This document shows, one piece after another, positions 485-22,186 of a stretch of DNA of 64,000 bases. A program made the translations under genes and the position numbers. Origin of the DNA: Microbacterium sp. (GTDB lineage: Bacteria > Actinomycetota > Actinomycetes > Actinomycetales > Microbacteriaceae); assembly GCA_017306415.1 (NCBI GenBank), contig JAFKIL010000001.1, positions 682,001 through 746,000 on the forward strand, given 5' to 3'. The first letter of the stretch is position 1. The number at the start of each line of letters is the position of its first letter. Under the pieces are notes generated by a model. That model was given only the letters and a program-made list of their open reading frames with translations, made no database searches and was not told the DNA's origin.

Positions 485-1481
485 CGAGCGACCCCGACGC
501 GCGGCCGGCGCGAAGATCGTCGACGGCGTCGGCGGTCCGGGCGAAGGGATAGCGCGTCACGTGGGCGCGCAGTGCCAGATGCTCGGCCAGTCGAAGGAAG
601 GCGGCACCGTCCTCCCGCGTGTTCGCGGTGACGGTGCGCAGGTCGCGCTCACGGAACAGATGATCGTCGTAGGTCATGGCGGGGATGTCGGTCATGTGGA
701 TGCCTGCCAGCACCACCGTGCCGCCGGGCGCGGTGGCCGCCAACGCATCCTGCACGAGCTCACCCGCTGGCGCGAAGACGATGGCCGCGTCGAGCGGAAC
801 GGGCGGGCGCTCGTGCTCCGACCCGACGAACGTCGCACCGACCGCGCGGGCGAGCGCCCGGTTCTCCTCGCCTCGGGTCATCGCGAACACCCGCGCCCCC
901 GATGCCATCGCGACGGCGGCGGTGAGGTGACCGCTCGAGCCGAACCCGTAGATGCCGAGATCTCCGCCCGCCGGCAGGCGCGTACGGCTCAGGGCGCGGT
1001 AGCCGATGATGCCCGCGCACAGGAGCGGGGCCGTCGCGACAGCATCCGTGGATGCCGGGAGCGCGTAGGAGAACCGTTCGTCCGCGACAGCGTAGGGCGC
1101 GAAACCGCCGTCCCGATCCCATCCCGTGAAGGTCGCCGACTTGCAGAGGTTCTCGCGACCAGAGAGGCACCACGTGCACGCGCCGCAGGTGCGGCCGAGC
1201 CATGCGACGCCGACGAGCGCGCCCGGGCGGAAGCGCACGGCATCCGCCCCGCCGTCGACGACCTCGCCCACGATCTGGTGCCCGGGCACCAGAGGCGACC
1301 TGTGCGGAGGGATCTCGGCATCGATGACGTGGAGGTCGGTCCGGCACACTCCGCACGCGCGCACGCGCAGTAGGACGTCGTGTCCGGTCGGCCGCGGCAC
1401 CTCCATCGTCACGAGGCGGAGGTCACCGGTGGACGACGTCACCCACGCGGACATGTGAGGAGGGATCTCGGCGCCAGGCAT
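459..1481 (-). CDS. Zinc-dependent alcohol dehydrogenase
   Basis: Medium-chain zinc alcohol dehydrogenase of about 340 residues, which would oxidise alcohols or reduce aldehydes with NAD(P). The catalytic zinc motif RACGVCRTDLHV and PGHQIVGEV lie near the N terminus. The structural zinc cysteines follow in CGACTWCLSGRENLC, and a Rossmann glycine motif GIYGFGSSGH sits mid-protein. A longer reading to 1538 is open, but its first codons are the regulator box at 1516-1529. I chose the ATG at 1481 because it leaves 34 bp between box and start, the spacing shared by six other starts here. ATG 1454 (MSAW) also fits the family's usual N terminus. No good Shine-Dalgarno precedes either. Likely role: fermentative redox balance under low oxygen. 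Confidence 0.9.
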   Translation of the reverse strand: MPGAEIPPHMSAWVTSSTGDLRLVTMEVPRPTGHDVLLRVRACGVCRTDLHVIDAEIPPHRSPLVPGHQIVGEVVDGGADAVRFRPGALVGVAWLGRTCGACTWCLSGRENLCKSATFTGWDRDGGFAPYAVADERFSYALPASTDAVATAPLLCAGIIGYRALSRTRLPAGGDLGIYGFGSSGHLTAAVAMASGARVFAMTRGEENRALARAVGATFVGSEHERPPVPLDAAIVFAPAGELVQDALAATAPGGTVVLAGIHMTDIPAMTYDDHLFRERDLRTVTANTREDGAAFLRLAEHLALRAHVTRYPFARTADAVDDLRAGRASGSLVIDMAVGE

Positions 1482-1515
1482 AGCGCCATCCCAGCGGCGC
1501 CCGATCCCGGTGGGG

Positions 1516-1529
1516 AGGACGAAGGTCCC
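1516..1529 (-). promoter_or_regulatory. DosR-type box before the alcohol dehydrogenase
   Basis: On the minus strand this reads GGGACCTTCGTCCT, one mismatch from the perfect arms seen at 2143. It lies 34 bp before the ATG at 1481. The -12 to -7 hexamer relative to that ATG is TGGGAT. Confidence 0.75.
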
Positions 1530-1542
1530 CCGGGTCATGGAC

Positions 1543-1574
1543 GAGGGGCGTCGCCTTCACGGACGACGCCCCTC
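1543..1574 (-). terminator. Hairpin after the universal stress protein gene
   Basis: An 11-bp perfect inverted repeat (GAGGGGCGTCG at 1543-1553 and CGACGCCCCTC at 1564-1574) encloses a 10-nt loop. It sits between the stop of the stress protein gene at 1643 and the next gene's regulator box. No T-run follows, so Rho-independent termination is inferred from the stem alone. Confidence 0.55.
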
Positions 1575-1642
1575 TCAACCCCCCCGGTGCGCGGTTCGCG
1601 GCCCCGATGCGACGCGCGCTGATCGGAACGGAGGGGGAACCA

Positions 1643-2107
1643 TCACGCTGCGACGGCGTCGCGGGGCGGGTGGTAGATCAGCACCGGACATCGCGCGTGC
1701 TCCGCGCATTGAGCGCTGACGGATCCGAGCAGGAGACCGGCGAACCCGCCATGCCCGCGGCTGCCGACGACCAGCAGGTCGGCCGCTGCACTCTGACGGA
1801 TCAGCACCTCGGCGGCGTCCCCCTCGTGGATCTCCGCTGTGATCCGGGCGGGCGGGTCGTTCGCGAACGCCCGCGTGATCGCCTCCTCGAGCCGGACCTC
1901 CGCCTCTTCGCGCAGGTCCGCGGGTCCGACCGGAAGCCCGATGTAGCCGGTCGGCGATGTCCAGGCGGTGACGGCGACGACTGTCGCCCCGAGGGTCTCG
2001 GCAAGCGCGTCGGCGTAGCGCAGTGCTGCGAGGGAATGCTCGGAGCGGTCGACGCCCACCACGATCCGCGTGATGAACTGCGGCGTATCGCCCGTGATGG
2101 CTGGCAT
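1643..2107 (-). CDS. Universal stress protein, single domain
   Basis: A 154-residue universal stress protein (UspA fold). The N-terminal strand RIVVGVDRSEHSLAAL and the C-terminal ATP-binding motif GSRGHGGFAGLLLGSVS are both intact, so it should belong to the nucleotide-binding class. The end CPVLIYHPP is typical. It is divergent from the sensor kinase gene, with a regulator box between them ending 35 bp before this ATG. No Shine-Dalgarno is visible, and GACAAT lies at -12 to -7 if transcription starts one base before the ATG. USP genes are a hallmark of the mycobacterial DosR regulon. The specific ligand or partner cannot be read from sequence. Confidence 0.93.
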   Translation of the reverse strand: MPAITGDTPQFITRIVVGVDRSEHSLAALRYADALAETLGATVVAVTAWTSPTGYIGLPVGPADLREEAEVRLEEAITRAFANDPPARITAEIHEGDAAEVLIRQSAAADLLVVGSRGHGGFAGLLLGSVSAQCAEHARCPVLIYHPPRDAVAA

Positions 2108-2142
2108 AGCCCCGATTGTCGCTCAGGGGACGCGACCGCGCC

Positions 2143-2156
2143 GGGACGAAGGTCCC
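2143..2156 (-). promoter_or_regulatory. DosR-type box between usp and dosS
   Basis: GGGACGAAGGTCCC on the plus strand, GGGACCTTCGTCCC on the minus strand. It is 35 bp from the stress protein ATG and 95 bp from the sensor kinase ATG, so it mainly fits control of the stress protein. The kinase may instead use a nearby TAGATT -10-like element at 2212-2217. Confidence 0.8.
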
Positions 2157-2251
2157 AGGGATCTCCCGCGCGACCGACCCCGGTGCCGTGACGTGGAGAC
2201 GCAGTACGGGATAGATTTGTGTCGTGCCACCGCTGGATCGAGGAGGTCGGC

Positions 2252-3970
2252 ATGCCGGGTAGTGATCCCCTCTCGTTCCCGGACGGGCCCCGCCACGACC
2301 TCGACAGGGCGCTCGCCGATCTCGTCGAGCGTGCGAACGCCGTCGCGAACACGCAGGGACGACTGCGCGATCTCCTCCGTGCCACCAGGGAGCTGATCGA
2401 AGAGACCGATCTGCCGCTGGTCCTGCGCCGTATCGTGGAGGCCGCCGTCGAACTGGTCGGCGCCCGGTACGGCGCCATGGGGGTGGTCGCGCCCGACGGC
2501 ACACTGGAGCAGTTCATCCACGTGGGAATGCCCGCGGATACGGCGGCGAGCATCGGGCACCTGCCTCGAGGCGCCGGACTCCTCGGGGCGCTCATCGCCG
2601 ACCCCACGCCGATCCGGCTCGAGCACATCACCGACGACGAGCGCTCCGTGGGATTCCCGGCGCATCATCCGCCGATGGACTCGTTCCTCGGTGTGCCCGT
2701 CAGGGTGCGGGATCAGGTGTTCGGCAACCTCTACCTCACCGACAGTGGGGCGCGCTCCTTCAGCCGAGAGGATGAGGAACTGGTGACGTCGCTGGCCGCC
2801 ACCGCGGGCTTCGCGATCGACAACGCCCGCCTGCTGCAGGAGACGCGGGTGCGTGCGCGGTGGGCGGCGGCGACCACCGAGCTCACGACGCAGCTGCTCG
2901 ATCCCGGAACGACCGACGCCGACACCGCGATCGCCGTCGCCATCGCGGTCGCCGCGGACGCCGACCTCGTCTGCATCGTCCGTGCGGGCGCCGCTGGGGA
3001 GCCGCCCCGCATCGCCGCGGCATGGGGCGCCACGGGCGAGCCGCGGGTCGGCACGGCGCTGGCCGCGACCGGCACGGCCGTCGCCGACGCCCTCGGCACC
3101 GACGCCCCCGCGACCGCCCCGCCGGGCGCTGCCGCCCCGGAGGATCCGACGAGACTCACCCGGCACGACCGGTCCGGTCCCGTTCTCGCGGTCCCGCTCT
3201 CGGTCGTCAAGAGCCCGGCCAGCGCGATCACGATCGCGCGCGATCCGGGCGCGCCGGGGTTCGGGCCGACCGACGTCGAGGCGGCGACCGATCTGGCCGC
3301 GCAGGTGAGCGTCGCCCTCGACCTCGTCCGCGCGCGCACCTTCGAGGAACGCACGATGCTGCTCGAGGACCGCGGCCGGATCGCTCGCGACCTGCACGAC
3401 CATGTGATCCAGGATCTGTTCGGCACCGGACTGCAGCTCCAGGCGCTCGCCACGATGCTGCCCGATCCCGCACAGGCGCAGCGACTGGAGCGTGCCATCG
3501 AACGGCTCGACGATGCGATCTCCCAGATCCGCTCGATCATCTTCGCGACGAGCCCCTTCGCTGGACGGGCGGATACCGCCCGCCACCGGATCATGGATCT
3601 CGCCGCCGAGCTCTCGGCGACCCTCCCGTCACCGATCTCGGTCCGCTTCTCCGGTCCGATCGACCACAGCGTGGACGAGGACCTCCTTCCCGATCTCATC
3701 GCGGTCGCGCGTGAGCTCCTCACGAACGCCGTGCGGCACGCGCGGGCGGAGTCGATCGGGATCAGGGTCGATGTCGCGGGAGGCCAGCTGACCATGGCGG
3801 TGCGAGACGACGGAGTGGGGCTCAGGACGAAGACGAGGGAGAGCGGATTGCGCAACATCACCCATAGAGCGGAGAAGCGCGGCGGCGCCGTCGTCATCGA
3901 CTCCCGGCCGGGCGCGACGTCGGTGCAGTGGTCCGTCCCGCTGCACCCCGTACGCGGGAGGAGCCGATGA
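2252..3970 (+). CDS. dosS: GAF-GAF sensor histidine kinase, DosS/DosT-like
   Basis: A 572-residue soluble sensor kinase matching the mycobacterial DosS/DosT layout. GAF1 spans about 50-195, GAF2 about 210-360, then a HisKA_3 dimerisation domain with DLHDHVIQ (phospho-acceptor His near 382) and a HATPase domain (ELLTNAVRHA, DDGVGL). GAF1 contains FPAHHPPM followed by FLGVPVRVRD. The second His (about 139) aligns with the haem-ligand position of DosS (H149), so it probably binds haem and senses O2, NO or CO. I chose ATG 2252 because AGGAGGT at 2241-2247 precedes it; an upstream GTG at 2219 lacks one. The gene overlaps dosR by ATGA. Haem binding is inferred from homology. Confidence 0.93.
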   Translation: MPGSDPLSFPDGPRHDLDRALADLVERANAVANTQGRLRDLLRATRELIEETDLPLVLRRIVEAAVELVGARYGAMGVVAPDGTLEQFIHVGMPADTAASIGHLPRGAGLLGALIADPTPIRLEHITDDERSVGFPAHHPPMDSFLGVPVRVRDQVFGNLYLTDSGARSFSREDEELVTSLAATAGFAIDNARLLQETRVRARWAAATTELTTQLLDPGTTDADTAIAVAIAVAADADLVCIVRAGAAGEPPRIAAAWGATGEPRVGTALAATGTAVADALGTDAPATAPPGAAAPEDPTRLTRHDRSGPVLAVPLSVVKSPASAITIARDPGAPGFGPTDVEAATDLAAQVSVALDLVRARTFEERTMLLEDRGRIARDLHDHVIQDLFGTGLQLQALATMLPDPAQAQRLERAIERLDDAISQIRSIIFATSPFAGRADTARHRIMDLAAELSATLPSPISVRFSGPIDHSVDEDLLPDLIAVARELLTNAVRHARAESIGIRVDVAGGQLTMAVRDDGVGLRTKTRESGLRNITHRAEKRGGAVVIDSRPGATSVQWSVPLHPVRGRSR

Positions 3971-4599
3971 CCCGCGTCTTCCTGGTCGACGACCACGAGA
4001 TCGTGCGCCGGGGGCTCGCCGACCTCCTGTCGGCGCAGCACGACATCGAGATCGTCGGCGAGGCCGGCACCGTCGCCCAGGCGCGCCGGCGCATCCCCGC
4101 CACCTCCCCCGACGTGGCGGTCCTGGACGTGCGCCTGCCGGACGGCAGCGGCATCGACCTGTGCCGGGAGCTCGCCGAGAGCGCGCCGGACGTCCGTCGC
4201 CTCATCCTCACGGCGTACGATGACGACGCCGCCCTGTTCGCGGCGGTCGTCGCCGGTGCATCCGGGTACCTGCTGAAGAGCGTGCTCGGATCCCAGCTCG
4301 TCGACGGCGTGCGGGCGGTCGCCGCGGGGACCACCCTCATCGACCCGGAGCTCGCCGCGCGTGCGACGAAGCAGATGCGGGATGCCCCGCACACGGACGA
4401 CCCCCGCATCGGGTCGCTGGGGCTCCGTGAGCGCCAGGTGCTCGCGCTCATCGCCGACGGCCTTTCCAACCGGCAGATCGGCGAGCGCCTCGGCCTGGCC
4501 GAGAAGACGGTGAAGAACTACGTCTCCTCGCTCCTCACGAAGCTCGGCCTCGAGCGGCGCACCCAAGCCGCCGTATTCGGGGTCCGCTACGCCCCCTGA
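3967..4599 (+). CDS. dosR: Response regulator DosR (NarL/LuxR family)
   Basis: A 210-residue two-component regulator. The receiver domain has the phosphorylation aspartate D54 in VLDVRLPDG, with T82 and K104 at the same numbers as in M. tuberculosis DosR. The LuxR-type C-terminal helix-turn-helix carries LAEKTVKNYVSSLLTKLG and ERRTQAAVF, nearly identical to DosR including the base-contacting K-xx-K-N residues (K180, K183, N184). The start overlaps the kinase stop as ATGA, preceded by GGGAGGAG, so the two are translationally coupled. The conserved recognition helix agrees with the GGGAC half-sites repeated across this region, making this the probable regulator of the surrounding genes. Confidence 0.96.
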   Translation: MTRVFLVDDHEIVRRGLADLLSAQHDIEIVGEAGTVAQARRRIPATSPDVAVLDVRLPDGSGIDLCRELAESAPDVRRLILTAYDDDAALFAAVVAGASGYLLKSVLGSQLVDGVRAVAAGTTLIDPELAARATKQMRDAPHTDDPRIGSLGLRERQVLALIADGLSNRQIGERLGLAEKTVKNYVSSLLTKLGLERRTQAAVFGVRYAP

Positions 4600-4607
4600 C
4601 GCCGGGC

Positions 4608-4621
4608 GGGACCTTCGACCC
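4608..4621 (+). promoter_or_regulatory. DosR-type box before the SDR gene
   Basis: GGGACCTTCGACCC begins nine bases after the dosR stop and 73 bp before the SDR ATG. The identical 14-mer recurs at 11910 and 14318. Confidence 0.8.
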
Positions 4622-4694
4622 TGCCCTGTCAGCGCGTGCGTCGTTGACTGGGCTCGGCGGCCCGGAATGGGAGGGCCCGGACAGGAGTCGAGAG

Positions 4695-5441
4695 ATGGCA
4701 CACGAATTGCTCACCGGCCGCACCGTGATCGTCACGGGCGCGGGATCGGGGATCGGGCGCGCGACCGCGGAACGGGTCGCGGCCGAGGGCGGGCGCGTGA
4801 TCGCCGTCGACATCTCCGGTGACCGGCTCTCCGCCCTGCACGGGCTGATCGGGGACGACGCGGCCTTCGTCGCGGGCGACCTCGCCGACCCTGGCACGAT
4901 CGACGCGGTGATCGCGGCGGCGGGAGACGGCGCGGACGGCCTGGCGAACATCGCGGGGATCATGGACGGCTTCGAGCCGACCGCCGAGATCCGCGACGAG
5001 ACGTGGGACCGCGTCCTCTCCGTGAACGTGACCGCGATGATGCGGCTCACCCGGGCGGTCCTCCCCGGCATGCTCGCCCGAGGCGCGGGCGCCATCGTGA
5101 ACGTCGGCTCGGAGGCCGGCCAGCGCGGGTCTGCCGCCGGGACGCCCTACACGGTGTCCAAGCACGCCGTGAACGGCTTCACCCTCAGCACCGCCTTCTT
5201 CTACACGCCCCAGGGGATCCGTTGCAACGCGGTCGCCCCCGGCCCTGTCGCGACGAACATCGAGGCGCCCTTCCACTCGGAGTGGGCGCAGCAGCGGCTG
5301 GGGCCGATCATGCAGGCCGCGATCCCCGCGATCGCCCGGCCCGAGCAGCTCGCGGCCGCGATCGTCTGGCTGCTGAGCGACGAGGCTTCCGACGTGTCCG
5401 GAGCGATCCTGAGCGTCGACGGCGGATGGGCGGCGATCTGA
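4695..5441 (+). CDS. Short-chain dehydrogenase/reductase
   Basis: A 248-residue classical SDR with the cofactor motif TGAGSGIG near residue 14, NVAG-equivalent LANIAGIMDG, the catalytic serine in NVGSEAG, and the YTVSK catalytic Tyr/Lys pair. The C terminus DVSGAILSVDGGWA is typical of the family. The acidic residue after strand 2 (IAVDIS) favours NAD(H). The substrate is unknown. The start ATG is chosen for the AGGAG at 4683-4687. It is followed after one base by the PPOX gene, so the pair is probably one transcript from the box at 4608. Confidence 0.92.
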   Translation: MAHELLTGRTVIVTGAGSGIGRATAERVAAEGGRVIAVDISGDRLSALHGLIGDDAAFVAGDLADPGTIDAVIAAAGDGADGLANIAGIMDGFEPTAEIRDETWDRVLSVNVTAMMRLTRAVLPGMLARGAGAIVNVGSEAGQRGSAAGTPYTVSKHAVNGFTLSTAFFYTPQGIRCNAVAPGPVATNIEAPFHSEWAQQRLGPIMQAAIPAIARPEQLAAAIVWLLSDEASDVSGAILSVDGGWAAI

Positions 5442-5442
5442 G

Positions 5443-6063
5443 ATGGCCGCCACGCCCCGCCCGGCGGCCGATCGTCCCGCCGAGCCCGCAGAGATCGAGC
5501 AGCTCAGCACCGCGGAGTGCTGGCGCCTCGTCGAGCGCGCCACGCTGTGCCGGCTCGCCGTGGAGCGCGCCGACGGCGGGCCCGACATCTTCCCGATGAA
5601 CTACGTCGTCCACGACGGCGGCGTCTACCTGCGCTCCGCACCGGGAGGCAAGCTCCGCACTCTGCGGTCACGCCCGGAGGTCGCCCTCGAGGTGGATGGC
5701 GAGGAGGACGGGCATCACTGGAGCGTCGTGCTCCGGGGCGCCGCCCAGCGGCTGGACACAGACGCCGAGATAGAGGCCTCCGGAGTGCTCCGGCTGCGTT
5801 CCCTGAGCCCCACCCCGAAGCACAACTTCATCCGGGTGGTCCCGCGCACCGTGAGCGGCCGCCGCTTCCGCATCGCGACGGGCCGGCCGCCGACCGTCGA
5901 CGCACCTCCCGCCGCCGCGCGGGCATCCGCCCCGGTGTCGCCGTCGACGCAGCCGGAGCCACGACCGTCCGCACCGCACACGGAACCGCACGGCAAGCCC
6001 GTACCCATCCCCCACACATCCCCGATCGTGCAGGTGGAGCTCCCGGACCGACGCCGCGACTGA
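5443..6063 (+). CDS. PPOX-family flavin-binding protein
   Basis: A 206-residue protein whose first 150 residues match the pyridoxamine-5'-phosphate-oxidase-like split-barrel family: LSTAECWRLVERATLCRLAV, then PMNYVVHDGGVYLRSAPGGKL and VALEVDG. Such proteins bind FMN, F420 or haem and do redox or ligand-sequestering jobs. Residues after about 150 form a Pro/Ala/His-rich tail likely to be disordered. It lies one base after the SDR gene. Several PPOX-like proteins occur in actinobacterial DosR regulons. The cofactor cannot be decided here. Confidence 0.88.
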   Translation: MAATPRPAADRPAEPAEIEQLSTAECWRLVERATLCRLAVERADGGPDIFPMNYVVHDGGVYLRSAPGGKLRTLRSRPEVALEVDGEEDGHHWSVVLRGAAQRLDTDAEIEASGVLRLRSLSPTPKHNFIRVVPRTVSGRRFRIATGRPPTVDAPPAAARASAPVSPSTQPEPRPSAPHTEPHGKPVPIPHTSPIVQVELPDRRRD

Positions 6064-6083
6064 GGTCGCGGCAGCGGTCGGGA

Positions 6084-6107
6084 CCCTGAGTCGGGCCTCG
6101 CTCAGGG
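6084..6107. terminator. Possible bidirectional hairpin between convergent genes
   Basis: CCCTGAG and CTCAGGG form a 7-bp stem with a 10-nt loop between the PPOX stop and the stop of the convergent membrane protein gene. It is short and has no T-run, so this is tentative. Confidence 0.3.
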
Positions 6108-6536: not shown

Positions 6537-6555
6537 CTCGACTCCTCGTCTCTTC

Positions 6556-8052
6556 TCATCCGTGACCCGTCGCTGCCGGGTCGAGGTGGGCCCGACGATG
6601 CCGCCGCTCCCGGGCGGCCGCGTGTGCGGCTGCCGGCGCGGGCGCCGCCGCAGTCGCGGACGTCCCGCTCGTCGCGCCGCCGCCCGCGACCGTCAGGTCG
6701 ACGCGCTGACCGAGGTCGGCGACGTGCACCGGCCAACCCAGCGTCCGTTCGATACGCAGCCGGAGCGCGTCCGCGGCATCCGGCTCCCCGTGCGTCAGGT
6801 AGGTCGCGCGCGGCGGACGGGGCGCGGTGCTCAGCCAGGCCATGATCTGATCGGCGTCCGCGTGGGCGGACATCATCTCGAGGACGTGCACTTCCGCGCG
6901 GACCTGCACGTCGCGCCCGTGGATGCGTAGCTCGCGCGCCCCGTGCTGGAGCGCGGCTCCCCGGGTGCCCCCGGCCTGGAAGCCGGTCAGCACGATCGCG
7001 TTGCGCGGATCGCCGCCGTACGCCTCGATGTGGTGCAGCACGCGCCCTCCCTCGAGCATCCCGCTCGCCGAGACGATGACCGCCGGGCCGCCGCGGAGGT
7101 TCAGGAGCTTCGAGTCGTCCACGGAGCGGACGAGGGTGGCCAGCCGGTACATGTCGCGGAACTCTGCGCCGGTCACGCGATGCTCCTCCGGGTGGTCCTG
7201 GTAGATCTCGGAGCCGTTCACCGCCATCGGGCTGTTCAGGAAGATCGGGACGTCGGGGATCGCGCCCGCCGCGTGGAGGCGGCTCAGGTGCAGGAGCAGC
7301 GTCTCCGCCCGGCCGATCGCGAACGCCGGGAGGATGACGACGCCGCCCCGCCCGCACACCCGCGTCACGATCTCGCCGAGCGCGTGGGCGGGATCCTCGG
7401 GGGGATGGATGCGGTTGCCGTACGTCGACTCGCACACGAGCACGTCCGCGCCCTCGAACGGGCGCGGCGGCCGCATGAGCGGGTCGTCCGCACGGCCGAG
7501 ATCGCCGGTGAAGTGCACCCGGGCGCCCTCGACCTCGAGCCGGAGCTGCGCGGCCCCGAGGATGTGGCCGGCCGGCAGGAACCGCGCGACGACATCGCCC
7601 ACGCGGACATCCGTGTCGAACGGGTGGGCGCGGAACTGATCGAGTGCGGCCCACGCATCCCGCTCGGTGTAGAGCGGCTCGGGCGGCGAATGGCGCGAGA
7701 AGCCGTGGCGCCCGGCGAAGTCGGCCTGCTCCTCCTGGAGATGCCCGCTGTCAGGCAGGATCAGGCGGCTGAGTTCCTCGGTCCCCTCGGTGGAGTGGAT
7801 GCTGCCACGGAAGCCGTCTCGCACGAGTGCGGGCAGGTAGCCGGTGTGATCGAGGTGCGCGTGGGTGACCACCACCGCGTCGATGCTCTCGGGAGGCACC
7901 GGGAAAGGGGCGCGGTTGCGCTCGCGGAGCACCTTATAGCCCTGGAAGAGCCCGCAGTCGACCAGGATCCGAGCGTGCGCGGTCTCGATGAGATAGCGGG
8001 ATCCCGTGACGGTGTCGGTCGCACCGAGGAAGCGGAGCCTGGCGGCGGGCAT
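6556..8052 (-). CDS. Metallo-beta-lactamase/beta-CASP RNase-like protein
   Basis: A 498-residue MBL-fold hydrolase of the beta-CASP group, which act as RNA endo- or exonucleases. It shows the zinc motif THAHLDHTG at residues 63-71, HFTGDLG, the beta-CASP segment ILPAFAIGRAETLL, SASGMLEGGRVLHH, and the Zn-RMMBL end AHADADQIMAWL. The last 40 residues are an Ala/His/Arg tail. The start ATG 8052 is set by homology at MPAARLRFLGATDTVTGS and lies 34 bp from a regulator box. No Shine-Dalgarno is visible and GATGAT occupies -12 to -7. Longer in-frame starts read through the box and are rejected. The likely role is RNA turnover during stress; the RNA target is unknown. Confidence 0.93.
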   Translation of the reverse strand: MPAARLRFLGATDTVTGSRYLIETAHARILVDCGLFQGYKVLRERNRAPFPVPPESIDAVVVTHAHLDHTGYLPALVRDGFRGSIHSTEGTEELSRLILPDSGHLQEEQADFAGRHGFSRHSPPEPLYTERDAWAALDQFRAHPFDTDVRVGDVVARFLPAGHILGAAQLRLEVEGARVHFTGDLGRADDPLMRPPRPFEGADVLVCESTYGNRIHPPEDPAHALGEIVTRVCGRGGVVILPAFAIGRAETLLLHLSRLHAAGAIPDVPIFLNSPMAVNGSEIYQDHPEEHRVTGAEFRDMYRLATLVRSVDDSKLLNLRGGPAVIVSASGMLEGGRVLHHIEAYGGDPRNAIVLTGFQAGGTRGAALQHGARELRIHGRDVQVRAEVHVLEMMSAHADADQIMAWLSTAPRPPRATYLTHGEPDAADALRLRIERTLGWPVHVADLGQRVDLTVAGGGATSGTSATAAAPAPAAAHAAARERRHRRAHLDPAATGHG

Positions 8053-8086
8053 ACCGCGATCATCGCTGCGCGCCCCGGCGGATCGA

Positions 8087-8100
8087 GGGACCTTGGTCCC
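8087..8100. promoter_or_regulatory. Shared divergent DosR-type box
   Basis: GGGACCTTGGTCCC lies almost exactly midway between two divergent starts: 34 bp to the metallohydrolase ATG (8052) and 35 bp to the 57-residue protein ATG (8136). One site could drive both genes. Confidence 0.82.
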
Positions 8101-8135
8101 GGCGCCGGCGCTCGTCGGTGGGCCACAGTGTCGCC

Positions 8136-8309
8136 ATGAATCGACCAACGACCACGGTTCCCCGCATCGATCCAGCCGACGTGTCGCTGCCTCCCACGCA
8201 GCCCATCGACCTCACCGACGTCGTCCGCTCGCACCTCGAGTACCGGGCGCCCGCGATCGACCGCGATCGCATCCTCAGCCCCGCCGCGGTGAGGATCGGG
8301 CGCGTCTGA
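8136..8309 (+). CDS. 57-residue conserved-looking small protein
   Basis: A 57-residue soluble protein of unknown function, Pro/Asp/Arg-rich, with segments RIDPADVSLPPTQPIDLTD and VVRSHLEYRAPAIDRDRIL. It has no membrane helix or recognised domain. The ATG is 35 bp from the shared box, CACAGT lies at -12 to -7, and no Shine-Dalgarno is visible; these are the same features as the neighbouring large genes. A strong hairpin follows its stop at 8326-8360. Promoter, frame and terminator together argue that it is a real monocistronic gene. Its function is not inferable. Confidence 0.65.
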   Translation: MNRPTTTVPRIDPADVSLPPTQPIDLTDVVRSHLEYRAPAIDRDRILSPAAVRIGRV

Positions 8310-8325
8310 GCGTTCCCGGCCAGAA

Positions 8326-8360
8326 GGAGGGAGACGCCCTGTGCGAGGACGTCTCCCTCC
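8326..8360 (+). terminator. Hairpin after the small gene
   Basis: An 11-bp perfect stem (GGAGGGAGACG with CGTCTCCCTCC) and a 13-nt loop lie 16 bases after the small gene's stop. No T-run follows. Confidence 0.6.
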
Positions 8361-8467
8361 GCTGCTACAGCCTGGTGACGTCGACACAGCCCATCGCGTC
8401 ACGTCCGAACCGGCTGTACGGGAGCTACCCGTGCGTCCAACCTACGAGGGACGTCCCGGTCGGGTCC

Positions 8468-8513
8468 GGGACCAAGGTCCCGCACCGTCGTGAGCACGCG
8501 GGACCTTGGACCC
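8468..8513 (+). promoter_or_regulatory. Two tandem DosR-type boxes before ppsA
   Basis: GGGACCAAGGTCCC at 8468-8481 and GGGACCTTGGACCC at 8500-8513 have centres 32 bp apart, about three helical turns. The proximal box ends 34 bp before the ppsA ATG, with GATCGT at -12 to -7 and no Shine-Dalgarno. Confidence 0.85.
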
Positions 8514-8547
8514 GTCGGCACCCCCGCCGCAGCGGGATCGTCGGTCC

Positions 8548-10932
<2,385 letters not shown>

Positions 10933-10938
10933 CGGCGT

Positions 10939-11895
10939 ATGCCCCGCCGTCCCGTGCCGGGCATGCGCGTCACGCCGGGCCCCACGACGGCCCGCGCCAC
11001 GTGGCAGCAGGAGCCGGCCCGTGCCGGGTGGCGGGTCGTCGCGAGCTGGGGGCTGACCCTCGCGCTCAGCACGGTGCCGCTGATCGTCATCGATCGGGCG
11101 ACCGGCGCGGTGCCCGGGTGGGCGCTTGCGGCCCAGCTCGCGATCGCCGCGGCCTTCACGCTCGCGTGTCTGGGCGTCCGCGCCGTCCGTCCGCTGTGGC
11201 GGTTCGGCGTCGTGATGACCGCCCTCGTCCTCCTGACTCGCGTCGTCACGATCCCGCCGCTGTCGTTCCCCGCGGTCCAGGCCGCGCTCGGCGGGTCGGC
11301 CTTCGATCGACTCATGCAGCCGCAGCAGGCCGAGCGGCTGCTCGTCGCGATCCTGATGGTCGGGGTCCTCCTACTCCTCGGGTTCGGCGTCCGCCGATCC
11401 TTCCTCCTGCCGGGGGACCTGCACGCGCGCATCCGGCCCGTCGCAGCACTCGGCTTTCCCCGCGCAGATCCCTGGACCCGGTTCGGCGCGATCTGGGGCA
11501 TCGGCATCGCTGTCGCGCTCGGCGTCGTGCAGTTCCTGATCGCACGTCCGTCGAGTGCGGCCCTGGCAGCACTCGTCCCCCTCCTCCCCTCGGTCCTGGT
11601 CTACGCCGGCCTGAATGCCGTCAGCGAGGAGGTGACGTATCGGGCCGCGATGCTCGCTCCGCTGGAACCCGCGGTGGGGAGCGCGAACGCCATGTGGCAG
11701 ACGGCGTTCTTCTTCGGCGTGGCGCACTACTACGGGGTGCCGGGCGGGCTGCTCGGCGCGACCCTGTCGATCTTCATGGGGTGGATCCTCAGCAAGGCCA
11801 TGCTCGAGACCCGCGGGCTGTTCTGGCCGTGGACGATCCACTTCCTCAGCGATGTCGTCATCTTCGGGTTCATCGCCATGGCGACCGTCGGATGA
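10939..11895 (+). CDS. CPBP-family intramembrane protease
   Basis: A 318-residue membrane protein with about eight hydrophobic segments and the three CPBP (CAAX protease/bacteriocin-processing) motifs: SEEVTYRA near residue 230 (catalytic EExxxR), FFFGVAHYYG (FxxxH) and IHFLSDVVIF near the C terminus. These are Glu-type intramembrane proteases; the substrate is unknown. It starts 6 bp after ppsA and is probably in the same message. ATG 10963 is an alternative start. The pairing of a protease with PEP synthase has no obvious metabolic reason beyond shared stress control. Confidence 0.88.
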   Translation: MPRRPVPGMRVTPGPTTARATWQQEPARAGWRVVASWGLTLALSTVPLIVIDRATGAVPGWALAAQLAIAAAFTLACLGVRAVRPLWRFGVVMTALVLLTRVVTIPPLSFPAVQAALGGSAFDRLMQPQQAERLLVAILMVGVLLLLGFGVRRSFLLPGDLHARIRPVAALGFPRADPWTRFGAIWGIGIAVALGVVQFLIARPSSAALAALVPLLPSVLVYAGLNAVSEEVTYRAAMLAPLEPAVGSANAMWQTAFFFGVAHYYGVPGGLLGATLSIFMGWILSKAMLETRGLFWPWTIHFLSDVVIFGFIAMATVG

Positions 11896-11909
11896 CGCCT
11901 CCGCGTCAC

Positions 11910-11923
11910 GGGACCTTCGACCC
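11910..11923 (+). promoter_or_regulatory. DosR-type box before the two-domain usp
   Basis: GGGACCTTCGACCC lies 57 bp before the ATG at 11981. Placing the transcription start 41.5 bp from the box centre puts CATCGT at -12 to -7 and leaves a leader of about 23 nt. Confidence 0.8.
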
Positions 11924-11980
11924 GCGTCCAGCGGGAGCCGTCGGCCATCGTGGCAGCAGGTGGAAGACGGGAGAGGCATC

Positions 11981-12835
11981 ATGCCGGGAACGATCGTGGT
12001 GGGCGTGACGGAGAAGCCCGTGTCGCGGCGCGCCGTCGACTGGGCATGCGAACGCGCGATCGCGCGCGGCCTGCGGATCGAGCTCATCTCGATCGTCGGC
12101 GGCGCGATCGGTGTCGTGGGCGAAGGGCACGTCGTCGACGAGGCGCTTCGCCGGACGAGCGACCTGCTCGAGGGCGAGGTGGCGCGGGTGCGCGAGCGCG
12201 GCGCGACGGCCGACGGCCGCGTGCGCCGCGGACGCCCCGTCGAGCAGCTCATCGCTGCGAGCGAGGATGCGGCCATGCTCGTCATCGGGAGCGACTACCG
12301 CGGGCACAGCACCGGGCCCGAGCGCGGGCAGCACGGCCTGCGGATCACCGCTGGCGCGCACTGTCCTGTTGCCGTCGTCCCCGACCTCGACCTGGCCGAG
12401 CGGACGGGGGTCGTGGTCGGCGTGGACGGGTCGGAGGTGTCGGAGGCGGCTCTCGCGTTCGCCGCGGAGGAAGCTGATCGCCTCGGCGAGCCCCTGACCG
12501 CCGTGAGCACGTGGACCCCCATCGCGCTCCCGTACGAGATGGACGGTTACCCCACGTCGTATCTCGACAACATGACGCACCTCACCGAGGAGTCGCTGTC
12601 CATCGCCCTCGCGGGCGTCCCTGAGAGCCATCCGGACCTCGCCGTGCATCGGGTGGTCGAGTACGGGTTCCCCGCGTCGACGCTCAACCGTCTCGCCGCG
12701 CACGCCCGGCTTCTGGTGGTCGGCTCGCACGGCCGCGGCGCGCTGGCCCGATTCCTGCTCGGCTCCACGAGCGAGCTGGTGCTCGCCCGGCTGGCGACGG
12801 CGACGGTCGTCGTGCGACCTCGGGAGACGCCATGA
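11981..12835 (+). CDS. Universal stress protein, tandem domains
   Basis: A 284-residue protein with two UspA domains. Domain 1 (about 1-140) has a degenerate nucleotide motif (GSDYRGHSTGPERG), so it may have lost ATP binding. Domain 2 (about 145-284) begins TGVVVGVDGSEVSEAAL and keeps GSHGRGALARFLLGSTS. The start is supported by GGGAGAGG just upstream. It overlaps the GyrI-like gene by ATGA, so both are likely translated together. M. tuberculosis has several tandem-domain USPs under DosR control. Confidence 0.92.
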   Translation: MPGTIVVGVTEKPVSRRAVDWACERAIARGLRIELISIVGGAIGVVGEGHVVDEALRRTSDLLEGEVARVRERGATADGRVRRGRPVEQLIAASEDAAMLVIGSDYRGHSTGPERGQHGLRITAGAHCPVAVVPDLDLAERTGVVVGVDGSEVSEAALAFAAEEADRLGEPLTAVSTWTPIALPYEMDGYPTSYLDNMTHLTEESLSIALAGVPESHPDLAVHRVVEYGFPASTLNRLAAHARLLVVGSHGRGALARFLLGSTSELVLARLATATVVVRPRETP

Positions 12836-13290
12836 CCGGAATCCGCGAGGTACACGAACGTGCGACGGCGACGGCCGGTGTGCGGGAGACCGTACCGACC
12901 GGGGCGTTGCCTGCCTTCTTCGCGCGCGCCCTGGCCCAGACCGCGGCCGCGCTCGATGCCCAGGGCATACATCCGATCGGGCCGCCGTACGGGCGGTACT
13001 ACTCGATGCCGGGTGCGGACGTGGACGTCGAGGTGGGATTCCCCGTCTCGGCGCCCGTGAAGCGCACCGGGAGGGTGTCGCCCGGTGAACTCCCGGGCGG
13101 GCGGGTGGTGGAAGCGCTCCACGCCGGATCCTTCGACACGCTCTCTCAGACCTACGCAGAGGTCCGGCGCTACTTCGAGGAGCACGACCTCACCCCCGGG
13201 GCGACGATGTGGGAGCAGTATCTGACCGATCCGTCGTCGGGAGCGGACCCCTCGACGTGGCGCACCCGGGTCTGCTGGCCGGTGGTTTGA
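12832..13290 (+). CDS. GyrI-like small-molecule-binding protein
   Basis: A 152-residue protein resembling the GyrI-like/AraC effector-binding fold: GALPAFFARALAQTAAAL, GPPYGRYYSMPGADVDVEVGF, GRVVEALHAGSFDTLSQTY and a final MWEQYLTDP segment. Members bind hydrophobic or cationic ligands, or act as gyrase inhibitors in enterobacteria. No DNA-binding domain is attached. It is translationally coupled to the stress protein upstream and ends 2 bp before a convergent usp gene. Confidence 0.82.
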   Translation: MTGIREVHERATATAGVRETVPTGALPAFFARALAQTAAALDAQGIHPIGPPYGRYYSMPGADVDVEVGFPVSAPVKRTGRVSPGELPGGRVVEALHAGSFDTLSQTYAEVRRYFEEHDLTPGATMWEQYLTDPSSGADPSTWRTRVCWPVV

Positions 13291-13292
13291 GC

Positions 13293-14249
13293 TCAACCCC
13301 AGGACTCGTGCTCCTCGACTTCCGCGATCTCGGGCGCATCCGTCCGGGGTGCGGGAGCGGGGACCACGAGCACAGGGCACTCGGCGTGCGCGACGCACTG
13401 GGCGCTCACGGATCCGAGCAGGAGACCGGCGAACCCGCCTGTCCCGCGTCGCCCCACGACGAGCATCCCGGCGTGGGCGCTCGACTCGATGAGGCGCGCT
13501 GCCGGTGAGCCTGCGAACGCCCAGGCGCGATAGCCCTCCGGCCGCGCACCGGGGAAGGCCCGCTCCAGCGCGTCCTCCACGATCGAGCGCGCCTGTGCGA
13601 GACGCGGCCGGACGTCCGTTTCCCCGTACGACATCCGCGCGGTCACGCTCGTCAGCACATCGAGGGGCGCATGAAGCGCGTGCGCGATCCGGGCCGCCTC
13701 CTGCAGCGCCGCGATCGAGGCGTACGACCCGTCGACGCCCACGAGCACCCGGTCGTCCCGGACGGCGCCTCCCTCGGCGGGCTCTCCCACCGTCGCCGGC
13801 GCACGGGGCGCGGAGTGCGGACGGACCACGAGCACCGGGCAGCGCGCGTACTCCGCGACCGTGCGGCTGACGGACCCGAGCAGCATCCCCACGAAGCCGC
13901 CGCGCCCGCGACCGCCGACGACGAGCATCGAGGCATCCTCGCTCCCGGTGATCAGCGCGTTCGCGGCCGCGTTCCTGGTCGCGGTGATCGAGACGCGCGC
14001 CGGTGGCGCGTCGCCGAACGCCGCTGCGATCGCCCGTCTCGCGAGCGACGCCGCATCGATATCGGTCCCGGACGTCGCGAACTGGCCGGCGACGTGCGCT
14101 CCGCTGTCGTCGTCGACTGCGCAGGTGATCACGTCGATGGGCGCGTCCAGCGCTGCCGCGAGCCGCCCTGCGTACCGCAGGGCGTCCACCGACCCGTCTG
14201 ACCCGTCCACCCCGACCACGATCCGTTCCCCGGACTGAGACCTCACCAT
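13293..14249 (-). CDS. Universal stress protein, tandem domains
   Basis: A 318-residue protein with two complete UspA domains. Domain 1 starts RIVVGVDGSDGSVDALRY and has GGRGRGGFVGMLLGSVS. Domain 2 starts RVLVGVDGSYASIAAL and has GRRGTGGFAGLLLGSVS. Both ATP motifs are intact, unlike the other tandem protein. ATG 14249 lies 34 bp from a degenerate regulator box with CAGGCT at -12 to -7 and no Shine-Dalgarno. It is divergent from pfkB. In M. tuberculosis a USP gene and pfkB (Rv2028c and Rv2029c) are also neighbours in the DosR regulon. Confidence 0.93.
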   Translation of the reverse strand: MVRSQSGERIVVGVDGSDGSVDALRYAGRLAAALDAPIDVITCAVDDDSGAHVAGQFATSGTDIDAASLARRAIAAAFGDAPPARVSITATRNAAANALITGSEDASMLVVGGRGRGGFVGMLLGSVSRTVAEYARCPVLVVRPHSAPRAPATVGEPAEGGAVRDDRVLVGVDGSYASIAALQEAARIAHALHAPLDVLTSVTARMSYGETDVRPRLAQARSIVEDALERAFPGARPEGYRAWAFAGSPAARLIESSAHAGMLVVGRRGTGGFAGLLLGSVSAQCVAHAECPVLVVPAPAPRTDAPEIAEVEEHESWG

Positions 14250-14283
14250 GCCGTCAGCCTGCCGCGGGTCCTGCGAAGCGGTG

Positions 14284-14331
14284 GGGACCAAAGTCACGTG
14301 AGCGCTGTCGTCGGCGCGGGACCTTCGACCC
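14284..14331. promoter_or_regulatory. Two DosR-type boxes between usp and pfkB
   Basis: The minus-strand box GTGACTTTGGTCCC (14284-14297) is degenerate and faces the usp gene. GGGACCTTCGACCC (14318-14331) faces pfkB, 63 bp before its ATG. Centres are 34 bp apart. A start 41.5 bp from the second centre would give GATCAT as the -10 hexamer. Confidence 0.75.
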
Positions 14332-14394
14332 GATGCCGTGCCGCCACCGGCGAGATCATCGTCTCGTCGGAACGGCACGATCTGGAGGACGGGG

Positions 14395-15345
14395 ATGACG
14401 GCACCGATCGTCACCATGACGATGAACCCCGCGCTGGACGTGGTGACGTCCGCAGAGCGGGTGATGCCCGAGCACAAGCTGAGGTGCGGACCGGTCCGCA
14501 CCTGGCCGGGCGGCGGCGGCGTCAACGTCGCCCGCACGATCCTCAACCTGGGAGGTGCGGCGAGTGCCATCTACCCCGTGGGCGGCCTCACCGGCAGCGC
14601 GTTTCAGCAACTGGTGGCGACCACGGGAATCGAGGGCCACGTCGTCCGCGTCAACGGCGAGACCAGGGAGTGCTTCACGGTCGACGAGAGCGCCACAGGC
14701 AGCCAGTACCGCTTCGTCCTGCCCGGCCCGACCCTCTCAGACGCCGAGTGGGAGGCCTGCATCTCGCTCGTCGCCGATCACGCGCCGCACGGCGGCTATC
14801 TCGTGGCGAGCGGCAGCCTGCCGCCCGGTGTGCCCGAGGACTTCTACGGAAGACTGGCGCGGATCTGCGCCGGCGAGAACGCACGCCTCGTCGTCGACGC
14901 CGCGGGCGCACCGCTGCGGGCTGCCCTCGAGGAAGGCGTCTTCCTCATCAAGCCCAGCAGGAGCGAGCTCGCGCATCTGGTGGGCGCGAGCCACGACCTG
15001 GCTCCGGATGAGCACCTCACTGCCGTGTCCGAGATCGTGCGGACCGGGCGCGCCGAGATCGTGGCGCTGACCCTCGGGGCAGCGGGAGCGCTGATCGTCT
15101 CGAAGGACGGCGCCCTGCGCCTCCCCGCCCCCGAGGTCACGGTTCTCAGCGCGGTCGGCGCGGGAGACGCGTTCCTCGCGGGACTTGTCCTCCGCCTCGC
15201 GCAAGGGGCGTCGCTCTCCGACGCCTTCCGGACGGCAGTGGCGGCCGGAACAGCGACCAGCATGCGTCCCGGGACCGAGCTGTGCACCCTCGAAGACGTG
15301 GTCGCGCTCGAGGATCTGCTTTCGCCGGCGGTCACGCCATCATGA
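14395..15345 (+). CDS. pfkB: PfkB-family phosphofructokinase
   Basis: A 316-residue ribokinase-fold sugar kinase. The PfkB signature 1 is WPGGGGVNVARTILNLGG near residue 38. The C-terminal signature AVGAGDAFLAGLVLRL carries the catalytic Asp. The N-terminal IVTMTMNPALDVV is typical of 6-phosphofructokinase II and 1-phosphofructokinase; the exact substrate (fructose-6-P, fructose-1-P or tagatose-6-P) cannot be separated by eye. GGAGG at 14384-14388 supports the ATG. Its last 14 bases overlap the convergent small membrane protein gene. pfkB is a DosR target in mycobacteria. Confidence 0.92.
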   Translation: MTAPIVTMTMNPALDVVTSAERVMPEHKLRCGPVRTWPGGGGVNVARTILNLGGAASAIYPVGGLTGSAFQQLVATTGIEGHVVRVNGETRECFTVDESATGSQYRFVLPGPTLSDAEWEACISLVADHAPHGGYLVASGSLPPGVPEDFYGRLARICAGENARLVVDAAGAPLRAALEEGVFLIKPSRSELAHLVGASHDLAPDEHLTAVSEIVRTGRAEIVALTLGAAGALIVSKDGALRLPAPEVTVLSAVGAGDAFLAGLVLRLAQGASLSDAFRTAVAAGTATSMRPGTELCTLEDVVALEDLLSPAVTPS

Positions 15346-15535
15346 ACTCGAGCAGGTGGTACACGGCGTAGACCGGCCACACCACCGCCTGCAGGAGACC
15401 GAGCACGACGGCCCAGAAGGAGCCGTCCGAGCGCGAGATGAAGTAGATCGCAGCGCCGATGTAGGCCAGCAGGAAGAAGAACCCCCACGGGCCGGTCTTC
15501 TCAACCACGCGGACGCCCCGCGACGATTCGGTCAT
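15332..15535 (-). CDS. Small two-helix membrane protein
   Basis: A 67-residue protein with two hydrophobic segments (about 17-33 and 40-58) joined by a short SRSDGS loop. The N terminus is polar and basic (MTESSRGVRVVEKTGPW). AAGGGTG lies 7 bases before the ATG. It starts 5 bp after the larger membrane protein gene in the same direction, so both probably come from the box at 16244. No named family is recognised, but the compact architecture and good Shine-Dalgarno argue that it is genuine. Confidence 0.72.
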   Translation of the reverse strand: MTESSRGVRVVEKTGPWGFFFLLAYIGAAIYFISRSDGSFWAVVLGLLQAVVWPVYAVYHLLEFMMA

Positions 15536-15540
15536 CGTGA

Positions 15541-16209
15541 TCACCCTTCTCGTTCTTCGGTCGCTCGCAGGAAGGAACTCATCGCGACCCCGGTCACGGT
15601 CGCCATCGCCGCCGCCATCACGAGGCCCGCGCCCACGCCCACGGCCACCGCGGAGAGGATGTCCCGACCCTCGTACCAGAGCGGCGTGGCGACGATGAAG
15701 AACAGGCCCAGACCGAGAAGCCAGGCCACGAAGGTGGTCAGGATCCACCACCCCGCCTGCGCGAGGTGCCTGCGCAGCTCGATCCATTGCGCGACGCCGA
15801 TCGACAGCAGGATGACGGCACCGATCGTGAGGAGGAGCGCCGTGCGGGCGACCCAGGGCCACGAGAGCCACGAGTCGGCGGCCGCGGTGAGGAAGGATGC
15901 TACGACATACGCGACGACCGCCGCGAGCGCCGTCAGTGCCACCCATGCTCTCCGGCGAAGCTCCGGCAGGCGCTTCGCCAGAACTGTCGCCTGCGCCCAT
16001 CCCAACAGTGCCCCTTCGACCGCGCCCGCGAGCGGGAGCAGCACCGGGAAGACGGGCGTGTCGTGCGCGACGACCCCGACGAGCGCGGGAACGGCGAAGC
16101 CGACGGCCTCTCCGGCGGTGACGATCAGGATCCACCACGTGAGCCAGCGGCCCGCGGCCTGCCTTCGCAGGGCCTCGGGCAGCGGCGAGTGTATCTGGTG
16201 GGACGTCAT
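15541..16209 (-). CDS. Six-helix membrane protein of unknown function
   Basis: A 222-residue integral membrane protein with about six hydrophobic segments, starting MTSHQIHSPLPEALRRQ. No transporter signature is recognised. Its ATG is 34 bp from a regulator box, CACAGT sits at -12 to -7, and there is no Shine-Dalgarno, which places it in the same leaderless-looking class as usp, ppsA and the metallohydrolase. It is probably co-transcribed with the 67-residue protein downstream. It is the last regulon gene before the arsenic block. Confidence 0.82.
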   Translation of the reverse strand: MTSHQIHSPLPEALRRQAAGRWLTWWILIVTAGEAVGFAVPALVGVVAHDTPVFPVLLPLAGAVEGALLGWAQATVLAKRLPELRRRAWVALTALAAVVAYVVASFLTAAADSWLSWPWVARTALLLTIGAVILLSIGVAQWIELRRHLAQAGWWILTTFVAWLLGLGLFFIVATPLWYEGRDILSAVAVGVGAGLVMAAAMATVTGVAMSSFLRATEEREG

Positions 16210-16243
16210 GGGGTCACTGTGCTCCCACCGACCGCCTCACCAC

Positions 16244-16257
16244 GGGCCGAACGTCCC
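16244..16257 (-). promoter_or_regulatory. DosR-type box before membrane protein genes
   Basis: Minus strand GGGACGTTCGGCCC, 34 bp before the ATG at 16209. It lies between the arsR stop (16293) and the membrane protein gene, so the latter has its own promoter. Confidence 0.7.
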
Positions 16258-22065: not shown

Positions 22066-22079
22066 GGGACTTTCGGCCC
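22066..22079 (+). promoter_or_regulatory. DosR-type box before the bactofilin-like gene
   Basis: GGGACTTTCGGCCC, the copy whose left arm matches the mycobacterial GGGACT half-site. It is 107 bp before the ATG. A start near 22115 would place GAGACT as the -10 hexamer. Confidence 0.65.
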
Positions 22080-22186
22080 GGTGTCCGGGGTGCGTGCCTG
22101 ACGAGACTGGGTGCAGGCAACGCCTCCAGCACACATGATCCGCCCGACGCATCGAGCGATGCGCCCGAGGCTCGAAGGGGACTCCG

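What the first reader, a model, noticed from the sequence alone, without database searches (positions are those of the whole stretch)
1481..16257. Fixed box-to-ATG geometry suggests leaderless DosR targets
At seven starts (1481, 2107, 8052, 8136, 8548, 14249, 16209) exactly 34 or 35 bp separate the box from the start codon, putting the box centre at about -41.5, the classic class II activator position, if transcription begins at the start codon. Six of these have A at -11 and T at -7 (GATCGT, GATGAT, CACAGT, GACAAT, CAGGCT, CACAGT); the alcohol dehydrogenase has TGGGAT. None has a clear Shine-Dalgarno. Genes with wider gaps (4695, 11981, 14395, 22187) all have one.
Basis: seen in the sequence. 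Interest (0 to 1): 0.85.

Follow-up and report, generated by a model that had tools for sequence, protein, structure and literature searches.

The report
Leaderless hypoxia-regulon promoters in Microbacterium
In this bacterium the low-oxygen regulator DosR appears to bind at a fixed distance before the promoter of its target genes, and in many of those genes the message seems to begin on the start codon itself, without a ribosome-binding leader; two known features are combined here, and the pattern recurs in relatives.

Summary
In detail: all seven starts lie 34 or 35 bp from a GGGACNNNNGNCCC-type palindrome near dosS/dosR genes, probably in Microbacterium. The interpretation also holds, with one change of emphasis. 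What is fixed is the distance box to -10 to predicted transcription start, whether or not a start codon sits there. In own DNA the A/T pair of the -10 lies at box+23 in 19 of 48 box sides, 1.2 expected; in 40 other Microbacterium DosR neighbourhoods in 76 of 244, about 6 per other offset. Where a start codon lies there, the gene looks leaderless: the ATG follows the -10 rather than the box, and an SD-led alternative start exists in 1 of 28 cases against 70 of 104 other promoters. Leadered targets share the -10. DosR boxes overlapping -35 are known in Mycobacterium and leaderless mRNA is common in actinobacteria (roughly a third of genes here), so this combines known features. New here: a 1-bp shorter box-to-promoter spacing in Microbacterium and, near dosR, a -10 that lacks its first T. 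No transcription start has been measured.

The parts
2219..3970 (+). dosS-like histidine kinase (GAF, HisKA_3, HATPase)
   Evidence: Pfam; PDB relatives are DosT/DevS GAF domains (2vzw E 3e-46); start codon not settled (2219 GTG or 2252 ATG)
3967..4599 (+). dosR-like response regulator
   Evidence: Pfam (run from 3928); best PDB match 3c3w DevR E 5.5e-69, Asp54 and LAEKTVKNYVS kept
1516..1529 (-). DosR box, 34 bp from ATG 1481
1488..1493 (-). -10-like TGGGAT for 1481 (lacks A at -11)
462..1481 (-). zinc alcohol dehydrogenase, possibly leaderless; start uncertain (1481 or 1454)
   Evidence: Pfam; N-terminus
2143..2156 (-). DosR box, 35 bp from ATG 2107
2115..2120 (-). -10 GACAAT (box+22 to +27)
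1646..2107 (-). single-domain universal stress protein, leaderless-type; homologs in relatives often leaderless-type too
   Evidence: Pfam
8087..8100 (.). one DosR box between divergent starts 8052- (34 bp) and 8136+ (35 bp)
8059..8064 (-). -10 GATGAT for 8052
6559..8052 (-). MBL/beta-CASP protein, leaderless-type
   Evidence: Pfam; homolog L172 has ATG at gap 35 but no A/T pair there; homologs L163, L164, L171 have longer gaps
8124..8129 (+). -10 CACAGT for 8136 (box+23 to +28, shifted one base together with the ATG)
8136..8309 (+). 57-aa ORF, leaderless-type; PPTQPID motif also in L185 and L188
8468..8481 (+). second, upstream DosR box of the 8548 promoter
8500..8513 (+). promoter-proximal DosR box, 34 bp from ATG 8548
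8536..8541 (+). -10 GATCGT for 8548
8548..10932 (+). phosphoenolpyruvate synthase, leaderless-type; the L051/L022 ortholog also has a box at gap 34
   Evidence: NCBIfam
11910..11923 (+). DosR box of leadered USP 11981
11946..11951 (+). -10 CATCGT at the same distance; predicted transcription start about 11958
14284..14297 (-). DosR box, 34 bp from ATG 14249
14256..14261 (-). -10 CAGGCT for 14249
13296..14249 (-). two-domain USP, leaderless-type
   Evidence: Pfam
14318..14331 (+). DosR box of leadered PfkB 14395
14354..14359 (+). -10 GATCAT; predicted transcription start about 14366
16244..16257 (-). DosR box, 34 bp from ATG 16209
16216..16221 (-). -10 CACAGT for 16209
15544..16209 (-). 222-aa protein without family match, leaderless-type
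22066..22079 (+). DosR box of leadered gene 22187
22103..22108 (+). -10 GAGACT (box+23 to +28)
4608..4621 (+). DosR box before SDR gene 4695; no -10 at the usual distance

Best explanation
These are promoters activated by DosR. A DosR dimer sits on the palindrome, in the place of the -35 element, and helps RNA polymerase onto a -10 element at a fixed distance (A and T at box+23 and box+27). Transcription starts 34 bp, sometimes 35, after the box, so the box centre is at about -41.5. In a good part of the targets (about 9 or 10 of 19 in the own genome, 28 of 132 in the genus) the start codon lies at that first base or one base after it, so the mRNA is leaderless and is translated without a Shine-Dalgarno. 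The other targets start at the same place but carry a leader, most with a Shine-Dalgarno. Shown here: boxes, distances, -10 elements, their recurrence, and the dosS/dosR genes. Inferred: DosR binding, induction by hypoxia, the transcription starts and leaderless translation.
For: Own genome: A....T at box+23 in 19 of 48 sides, 1.2 expected. Outside the window: USP ATG at gap 34, P-type ATPase GTG at gap 34, and a GTG at gap 34 on another contig with TAGCGT. 40 Microbacterium DosR neighbourhoods: 76 (box+23) and 26 (box+24) of 244 sides against 6.0 per offset; ATG at 34/35 28 times against 8.8 expected in 317 sides. Box quality: boxes with such a -10 on at least one side rise from 7% (323 weakest) to 77% (62 best). 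In relatives, ATG gap minus A position is 11 in 36 and 12 in 13 cases, 3 or fewer at any other value from 5 to 17; A23 goes with gap 34 (18) over 35 (3), A24 with gap 35 (12) or 36 (8) and never 34; Fisher on 34 against 35 1.3e-6. Among 61 promoters with no start codon there, a pyrimidine-purine step stands at box+33/34 in 35. SD-led alternative start: 1 of 28 leaderless-type against 70 of 104 others. DosR and DosS resemble DevR and DosT/DevS.
Against: No transcript data. 1481 lacks A(-11) and its start codon is doubtful. 4695 has no -10 at the expected place; four of 13 boxes outside the window (L003, L007, L013, L020) have none on either side. 7 of 28 leaderless-type starts in relatives carry an SD-like 4-mer, as does 16209. 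The pyrimidine-purine step is also frequent at box+28/29 (30 of 61; 4 to 19 at the other offsets). In the order-level set another offset, box+47, reaches 9 of 54, near the peak of 10. MBL homologs keep neither the gap nor the -10 well. Leaderless-looking starts are common in ordinary genes. Related species are not independent, so the p-values are nominal; the weight matrix was built from the window's own boxes.
Confidence: 0.88

Rival explanations
1. Class II DosR promoters are real, but the true translation starts lie elsewhere or transcription begins further upstream, so the mRNAs have short or SD-less leaders.
For: 1481 has a possible internal start; SD-less leadered mRNAs are common in M. 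smegmatis (53% of leadered coding sequences, PMC6448022 passages).
Against: ATG tracks the -10 at 11 or 12 bases; of 14 box-bearing USP hits listed, 8 keep an in-frame ATG at gap 34 and 2 at gap 35; only 1 of 28 leaderless-type promoters has an SD-led alternative start.
Confidence: 0.08
2. The 34/35 spacing is a by-product of general leaderlessness: DosR places the -10, and ATGs sit at the start as they do for any leaderless gene, with no special selection for DosR targets. This is compatible with the best explanation as to mechanism.
For: About a third of ordinary genes carry A/T at -11/-7 or -12/-8 (rough); leaderless-type is 28 of 132 promoter sides across the genus.
Against: The own genome has about 9 or 10 of 19 gene-facing promoters leaderless-type, somewhat above that share (my count); small numbers.
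Confidence: 0.6
3. The boxes are repressor or nucleoid sites unrelated to DosR, and the -10 elements are ordinary promoters.
For: No binding data.
Against: The boxes match the DosR-type palindrome, lie in DosR neighbourhoods (122 boxes of score 15 or more in 37 of 40 relatives) at a -35-replacing distance, and the -10 of Microbacterium DosR promoters mostly lacks T(-12) (17 of 92 have it, against 14 of 17 non-DosR leaderless-looking starts of the own genome), which fits activator dependence.
Confidence: 0.03

Closest known systems
DevR/DosR-activated promoters of Mycobacterium tuberculosis
   Same: DosR regulator, heme-GAF-type kinase, palindromic box, TSP-proximal box overlapping the -35 element (PMC3029386, passages).
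   Different: In Microbacterium the -10 is usually 1 bp nearer the box (box+23) than in the other genera examined here (+24/25).
OsdR regulon of Streptomyces coelicolor
   Same: DosR ortholog with palindromic sites around its own locus and USP genes (PMC5069765, passages).
   Different: The word leaderless does not occur in its main text; no box-to-start geometry in the passages seen.
Leaderless transcripts of mycobacteria
   Same: -10 TANNNT 7-12 bp before 73% of primary transcription starts (PMC3898074, passages); 24% leaderless in M. smegmatis and 38-40% of primary starts in M. marinum (PMC6448022, PMC8022548, passages).
   Different: DosR promoters in Microbacterium mostly lack T(-12). No paper on leaderless mRNA in Microbacterium or Microbacteriaceae appeared in the listings.

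Membership tests
DosR (DevR) regulon | DosR ortholog present | tested here: met
   3c3w DevR E 5.5e-69 over residues 1-206
DosR (DevR) regulon | DosS/DosT-type heme GAF kinase beside it | tested here: met
   2vzw and DevS GAF chains; heme binding itself not testable
DosR (DevR) regulon | GGGAC-type palindrome upstream of targets | tested here: met
   11 boxes in the window (they seed the matrix), 24 in own DNA held at score 12.4 or more
DosR (DevR) regulon | induction by hypoxia or NO through DosR | not testable with these tools
   no expression data
class II activator promoter | activator site centred near -41.5 in place of the -35 element | tested here: met
   fixed box to -10 distance; the true +1 is inferred. 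The two-hexamer promoter scan found none in 1400-16400, but shuffles give only 0.5, so it says nothing
class II activator promoter | contact of activator with sigma region 4 or RNA polymerase | not testable with these tools
   -
leaderless genes | -10 element 7-12 bases before the start codon | tested here: met
   6 of 7 starts (2107 shifted by one base); 1481 not
leaderless genes | no Shine-Dalgarno at the start | tested here: met
   6 of 7 window starts lack AGGA/GGAG/GAGG at -17 to -6; 16209 has GGAG at the far edge. In relatives 21 of 28 lack it
leaderless genes | 5' end of mRNA within about 5 nt of the start codon | not testable with these tools
   needs 5'-end sequencing

The most novel reading that the evidence does not exclude
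Microbacterium has re-set the DosR promoter. The box is one base pair nearer the -10 than in other actinobacterial genera, and around dosR the -10 has lost its T(-12), so the promoter depends fully on DosR. Because transcription start and start codon coincide in many targets, one short cassette (box, 34 bp, ATG) makes a complete leaderless, DosR-dependent hypoxia gene that is easy to gain and move, even back to back on one box as at 8087. (Probability lowered from 0.40 to 0.35 on checking: four of the five promoter sides at remote boxes in the own genome keep T(-12).)
Probability: 0.35. Interest if true: 0.65.

Novelty: new variant of a known kind. Interest (0 to 1): 0.5.

Why it matters
A regulator site that predicts the transcription start to within a base or two would let one predict starts, leaders and translation mode for hypoxia regulons in many actinobacteria without expression data, and correct gene starts. 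The translated box reads like G/V-T-F-x-P in several relatives, with a start codon inside it in some, so annotation may extend proteins through it. The same geometry, one or two bases longer, appears before Tgs1-like, nitroreductase-like and USP genes in a more distant family, so it can be checked against published start maps. The spacing shift in one genus is a natural test of how DosR touches RNA polymerase.

Tried and rejected
The PEP synthase scan of genome contigs was of little use: 7 of its 80 loci held a box of score 14 or more. A DNA-pattern count over the genome had too little signal by itself (37 forward and 35 reverse against 27 and 25 in the reversed control), and a 1-mismatch scan of the window was no better than shuffles (55 found, 61.7 expected); a weight matrix and the -10 test were needed. 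Rfam and tRNA scans of the window gave only tmRNA and one tRNA. Back-to-back use of one box as a general rule was rejected: among 159 boxes of score 13 or more in relatives both sides carry the -10 in 12, fewer than the 27.4 expected from independence. Special enrichment of leaderlessness among DosR targets across the genus was not found: 28 of 132 against roughly a third for ordinary genes. The genus shift should not come from register choice, because the box is a palindrome.
Full report
What was checked. The window (about 67-73% GC in 4-kb steps) is part of a 3.76 Mb, 13-contig genome. Its closest PEP synthase relatives in named genomes are Microbacterium, so I call the genome Microbacterium; that name is inferred. 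The region holds a dosS-like kinase (2219-3970) and a dosR-like regulator (3967-4599). The regulator's best solved relative is DevR (3c3w, E 5.5e-69), with Asp54 and the stretch LAEKTVKNYVS kept. The kinase's GAF domain matches those of DosT and DevS. That Asp54 is phosphorylated is from an abstract seen in the listing. The role of other helix or heme residues is recalled and comes from no call.

The observation. Boxes and gaps are as stated: 34 bp at 1481, 8052, 8548, 14249 and 16209, and 35 bp at 2107 and 8136. A(-11)/T(-7) holds at 5 of 7 counted from the ATG, plus 2107 shifted by one base; 1481 lacks the A. By a simple 4-mer rule at -17 to -6, 6 of 7 lack a Shine-Dalgarno (16209 has GGAG at -16 to -13) and 3 of the 4 wide-gap genes have one (22187 has only GAAGGGG).

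More than chance. I built a 14-mer weight matrix from eleven window boxes and looked at every box side without gene calls. In own DNA (24 boxes, 48 sides, 298 kb held) the pair A....T lies at box+23 in 19 sides; 1.2 are expected and no other offset from 10 to 59 exceeds 4. The 13 boxes outside the window were chosen without regard to their -10: nine carry it on at least one side, and L003, L007, L013 and L020 do not. Among them are a USP with ATG at gap 34, a P-type ATPase with GTG at gap 34, and a 214-aa ORF without family match on another contig with GTG at gap 34 and TAGCGT. The window boxes also seed the matrix, but the matrix does not reach the -10.

Relatives. DosR at E 1e-50 or better occurs in 45 of 149 genomes searched, the own genome included. 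I took the neighbourhood in 40 of the 44 others. 122 boxes of score 15 or more lie in 37 of the 40. A....T peaks at box+23 (76 of 244 sides) and box+24 (26), against 6.0 at other offsets. ATG at gap 34 or 35 occurs 28 times against 8.8 expected in 317 sides (score 13 or more). The share of boxes with a -10 on at least one side rises with box quality from 7% to 77%.

Why leaderless. Across 497 sides in relatives, the ATG lies 11 bases (36 cases) or 12 bases (13) after the A of the -10, and 3 or fewer times at any other distance from 5 to 17. When the -10 moves by one base relative to the box, the ATG moves with it: A23 has gap 34 in 18 and gap 35 in 3; A24 has gap 34 in 0, 35 in 12 and 36 in 8 (Fisher on 34 against 35 1.3e-6, nominal because species are related). 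In Microbacterium, 1 of 28 leaderless-type promoters has an SD-led start further on, against 70 of 104 others; 7 of the 28 do have an SD-like 4-mer upstream. In 61 promoters with no start codon at the place, a pyrimidine-purine step stands at box+33/34 in 35; the next highest offset is box+28/29 with 30, the rest 4 to 19. So the predicted transcription start does not rest on the ATG alone. Of 14 box-bearing USP hits listed, 8 have an in-frame ATG at gap 34 and 2 at gap 35, while L174 has gap 64 behind the same kind of promoter. The MBL homologs are less conserved: L172 has ATG at gap 35 without the A/T pair, and L163, L164 and L171 have longer gaps.

The fixed quantity is the distance from box to promoter. 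Leadered genes share it: 11981 has CATCGT, 14395 GATCAT and 22187 GAGACT at the same place, and many dehydrogenase orthologs with ATG at gap 55-61 and AGGAG have it too (output partly cut). Leaderlessness is common here anyway: among 327 candidate starts of 111 genes in 192 kb, A/T pairs stand at -11/-7 in 28 and at -12/-8 in 25, against about 5 and 12 at offsets of the same codon phase, which suggests about a third of genes (rough, as starts were not annotated). In the own genome about 9 or 10 of 19 gene-facing promoters are leaderless-type (my count, after leaving out four of 23 sides: two whose motif lies in a neighbouring box, 14284+ and 14318-, and two that face no gene that I accept, 8468- and L004 2963+; the tenth is L001 2889-, which also has an SD-led start). 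In the genus it is 28 of 132.

Variation. In other genera of the order the pair lies at box+24 (10) and +25 (6) of 54 sides and at +23 in 1; there box+47 also reaches 9, unexplained. In 20 class-level loci it is 12, 6 and 0 of 72; in 14 loci of an unnamed family with Tgs1-like and nitroreductase-like targets it is 8, 5 and 0 of 40 (Pfam). Box+23 against box+24/25: Microbacterium 92 to 50, the rest 3 to 52. ATG excess at gaps 35/36 in these sets is weaker: 5 against 1.4, 5 against 1.3 and 7 against 1.1. In DosR promoters of Microbacterium the first base of the -10 is T in 17 of 92, against 14 of 17 non-DosR leaderless-looking starts of the own genome and 17 of 34 in relatives (p 0.001 for the latter, nominal). 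In the own genome it is T in 5 of 23 sides: 1 of 18 near dosR and 4 of 5 at remote boxes, so the loss is a feature of the cluster more than of every target. Activator dependence is the natural reading, but untested.

Literature. Overlap of the promoter-proximal DevR site with the -35 element is reported for M. tuberculosis (PMC3029386, passages). Leaderless transcripts and the TANNNT -10 are reported for mycobacteria (PMC3898074, PMC6448022, PMC8022548, passages). PMC6448022 also found DosR motifs upstream of mapped starts in hypoxia; whether those are leaderless was not visible. The Streptomyces OsdR paper (PMC5069765, passages) does not use the word leaderless in its main text. Listings for Microbacterium with DosR (7 papers), leaderless with Microbacteriaceae (3) or Microbacterium (9 of 10 listed), DosR with leaderless (20 of 50 listed) and DevR, dormancy, leaderless (15 of 78 listed), with passages of five of those papers, showed none that joins the two features. 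Supplements were not available, and subscription journals are mostly not held. The term class II and its -41.5 position are recalled from E. coli work.

Verdict. It is a variant of a known promoter type joined to a common mode of translation, with a clear, testable base-level prediction.

Noticed in passing
window 8087-8100: One palindrome stands between two divergent leaderless-type starts with a -10 on each side; two-sided boxes are rarer than expected in relatives but recur between ADH and USP genes (L168, L175, L176, L181).
   Followed up: partly
L208 9502+, L203 4901+, L236 10221-: In other genera dosR itself looks leaderless behind its own box (gap 36 GTG, gap 37 ATG, gap 36 ATG).
   Followed up: no
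L001 2889- and 12810-: GTG stands at gap 34 although the gene has an SD-led ATG further on (gaps 100 and 98); in the first case the GTG is in frame with the dehydrogenase, possibly a second, leaderless start.
   Followed up: no
L201-L220, box+47: In other genera of the order an A....T pair also stands at box+47 in 9 of 54 sides; no explanation.
   Followed up: no
G000:C4:373897-376263: A second PEP synthase copy (74% identical) lies elsewhere in the genome.
   Followed up: no
window 8136-8309: 57-aa ORF without family match; a PPTQPID motif recurs in L185 and L188.
   Followed up: partly
L172, L186, L185 upstream of USP: The DosR box translates in frame as T-F-V-P preceded by a GTG or ATG within or at the box, so gene starts may be annotated too far upstream.
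   Followed up: no
window 26322-26690: tmRNA gene on the minus strand.
   Followed up: no
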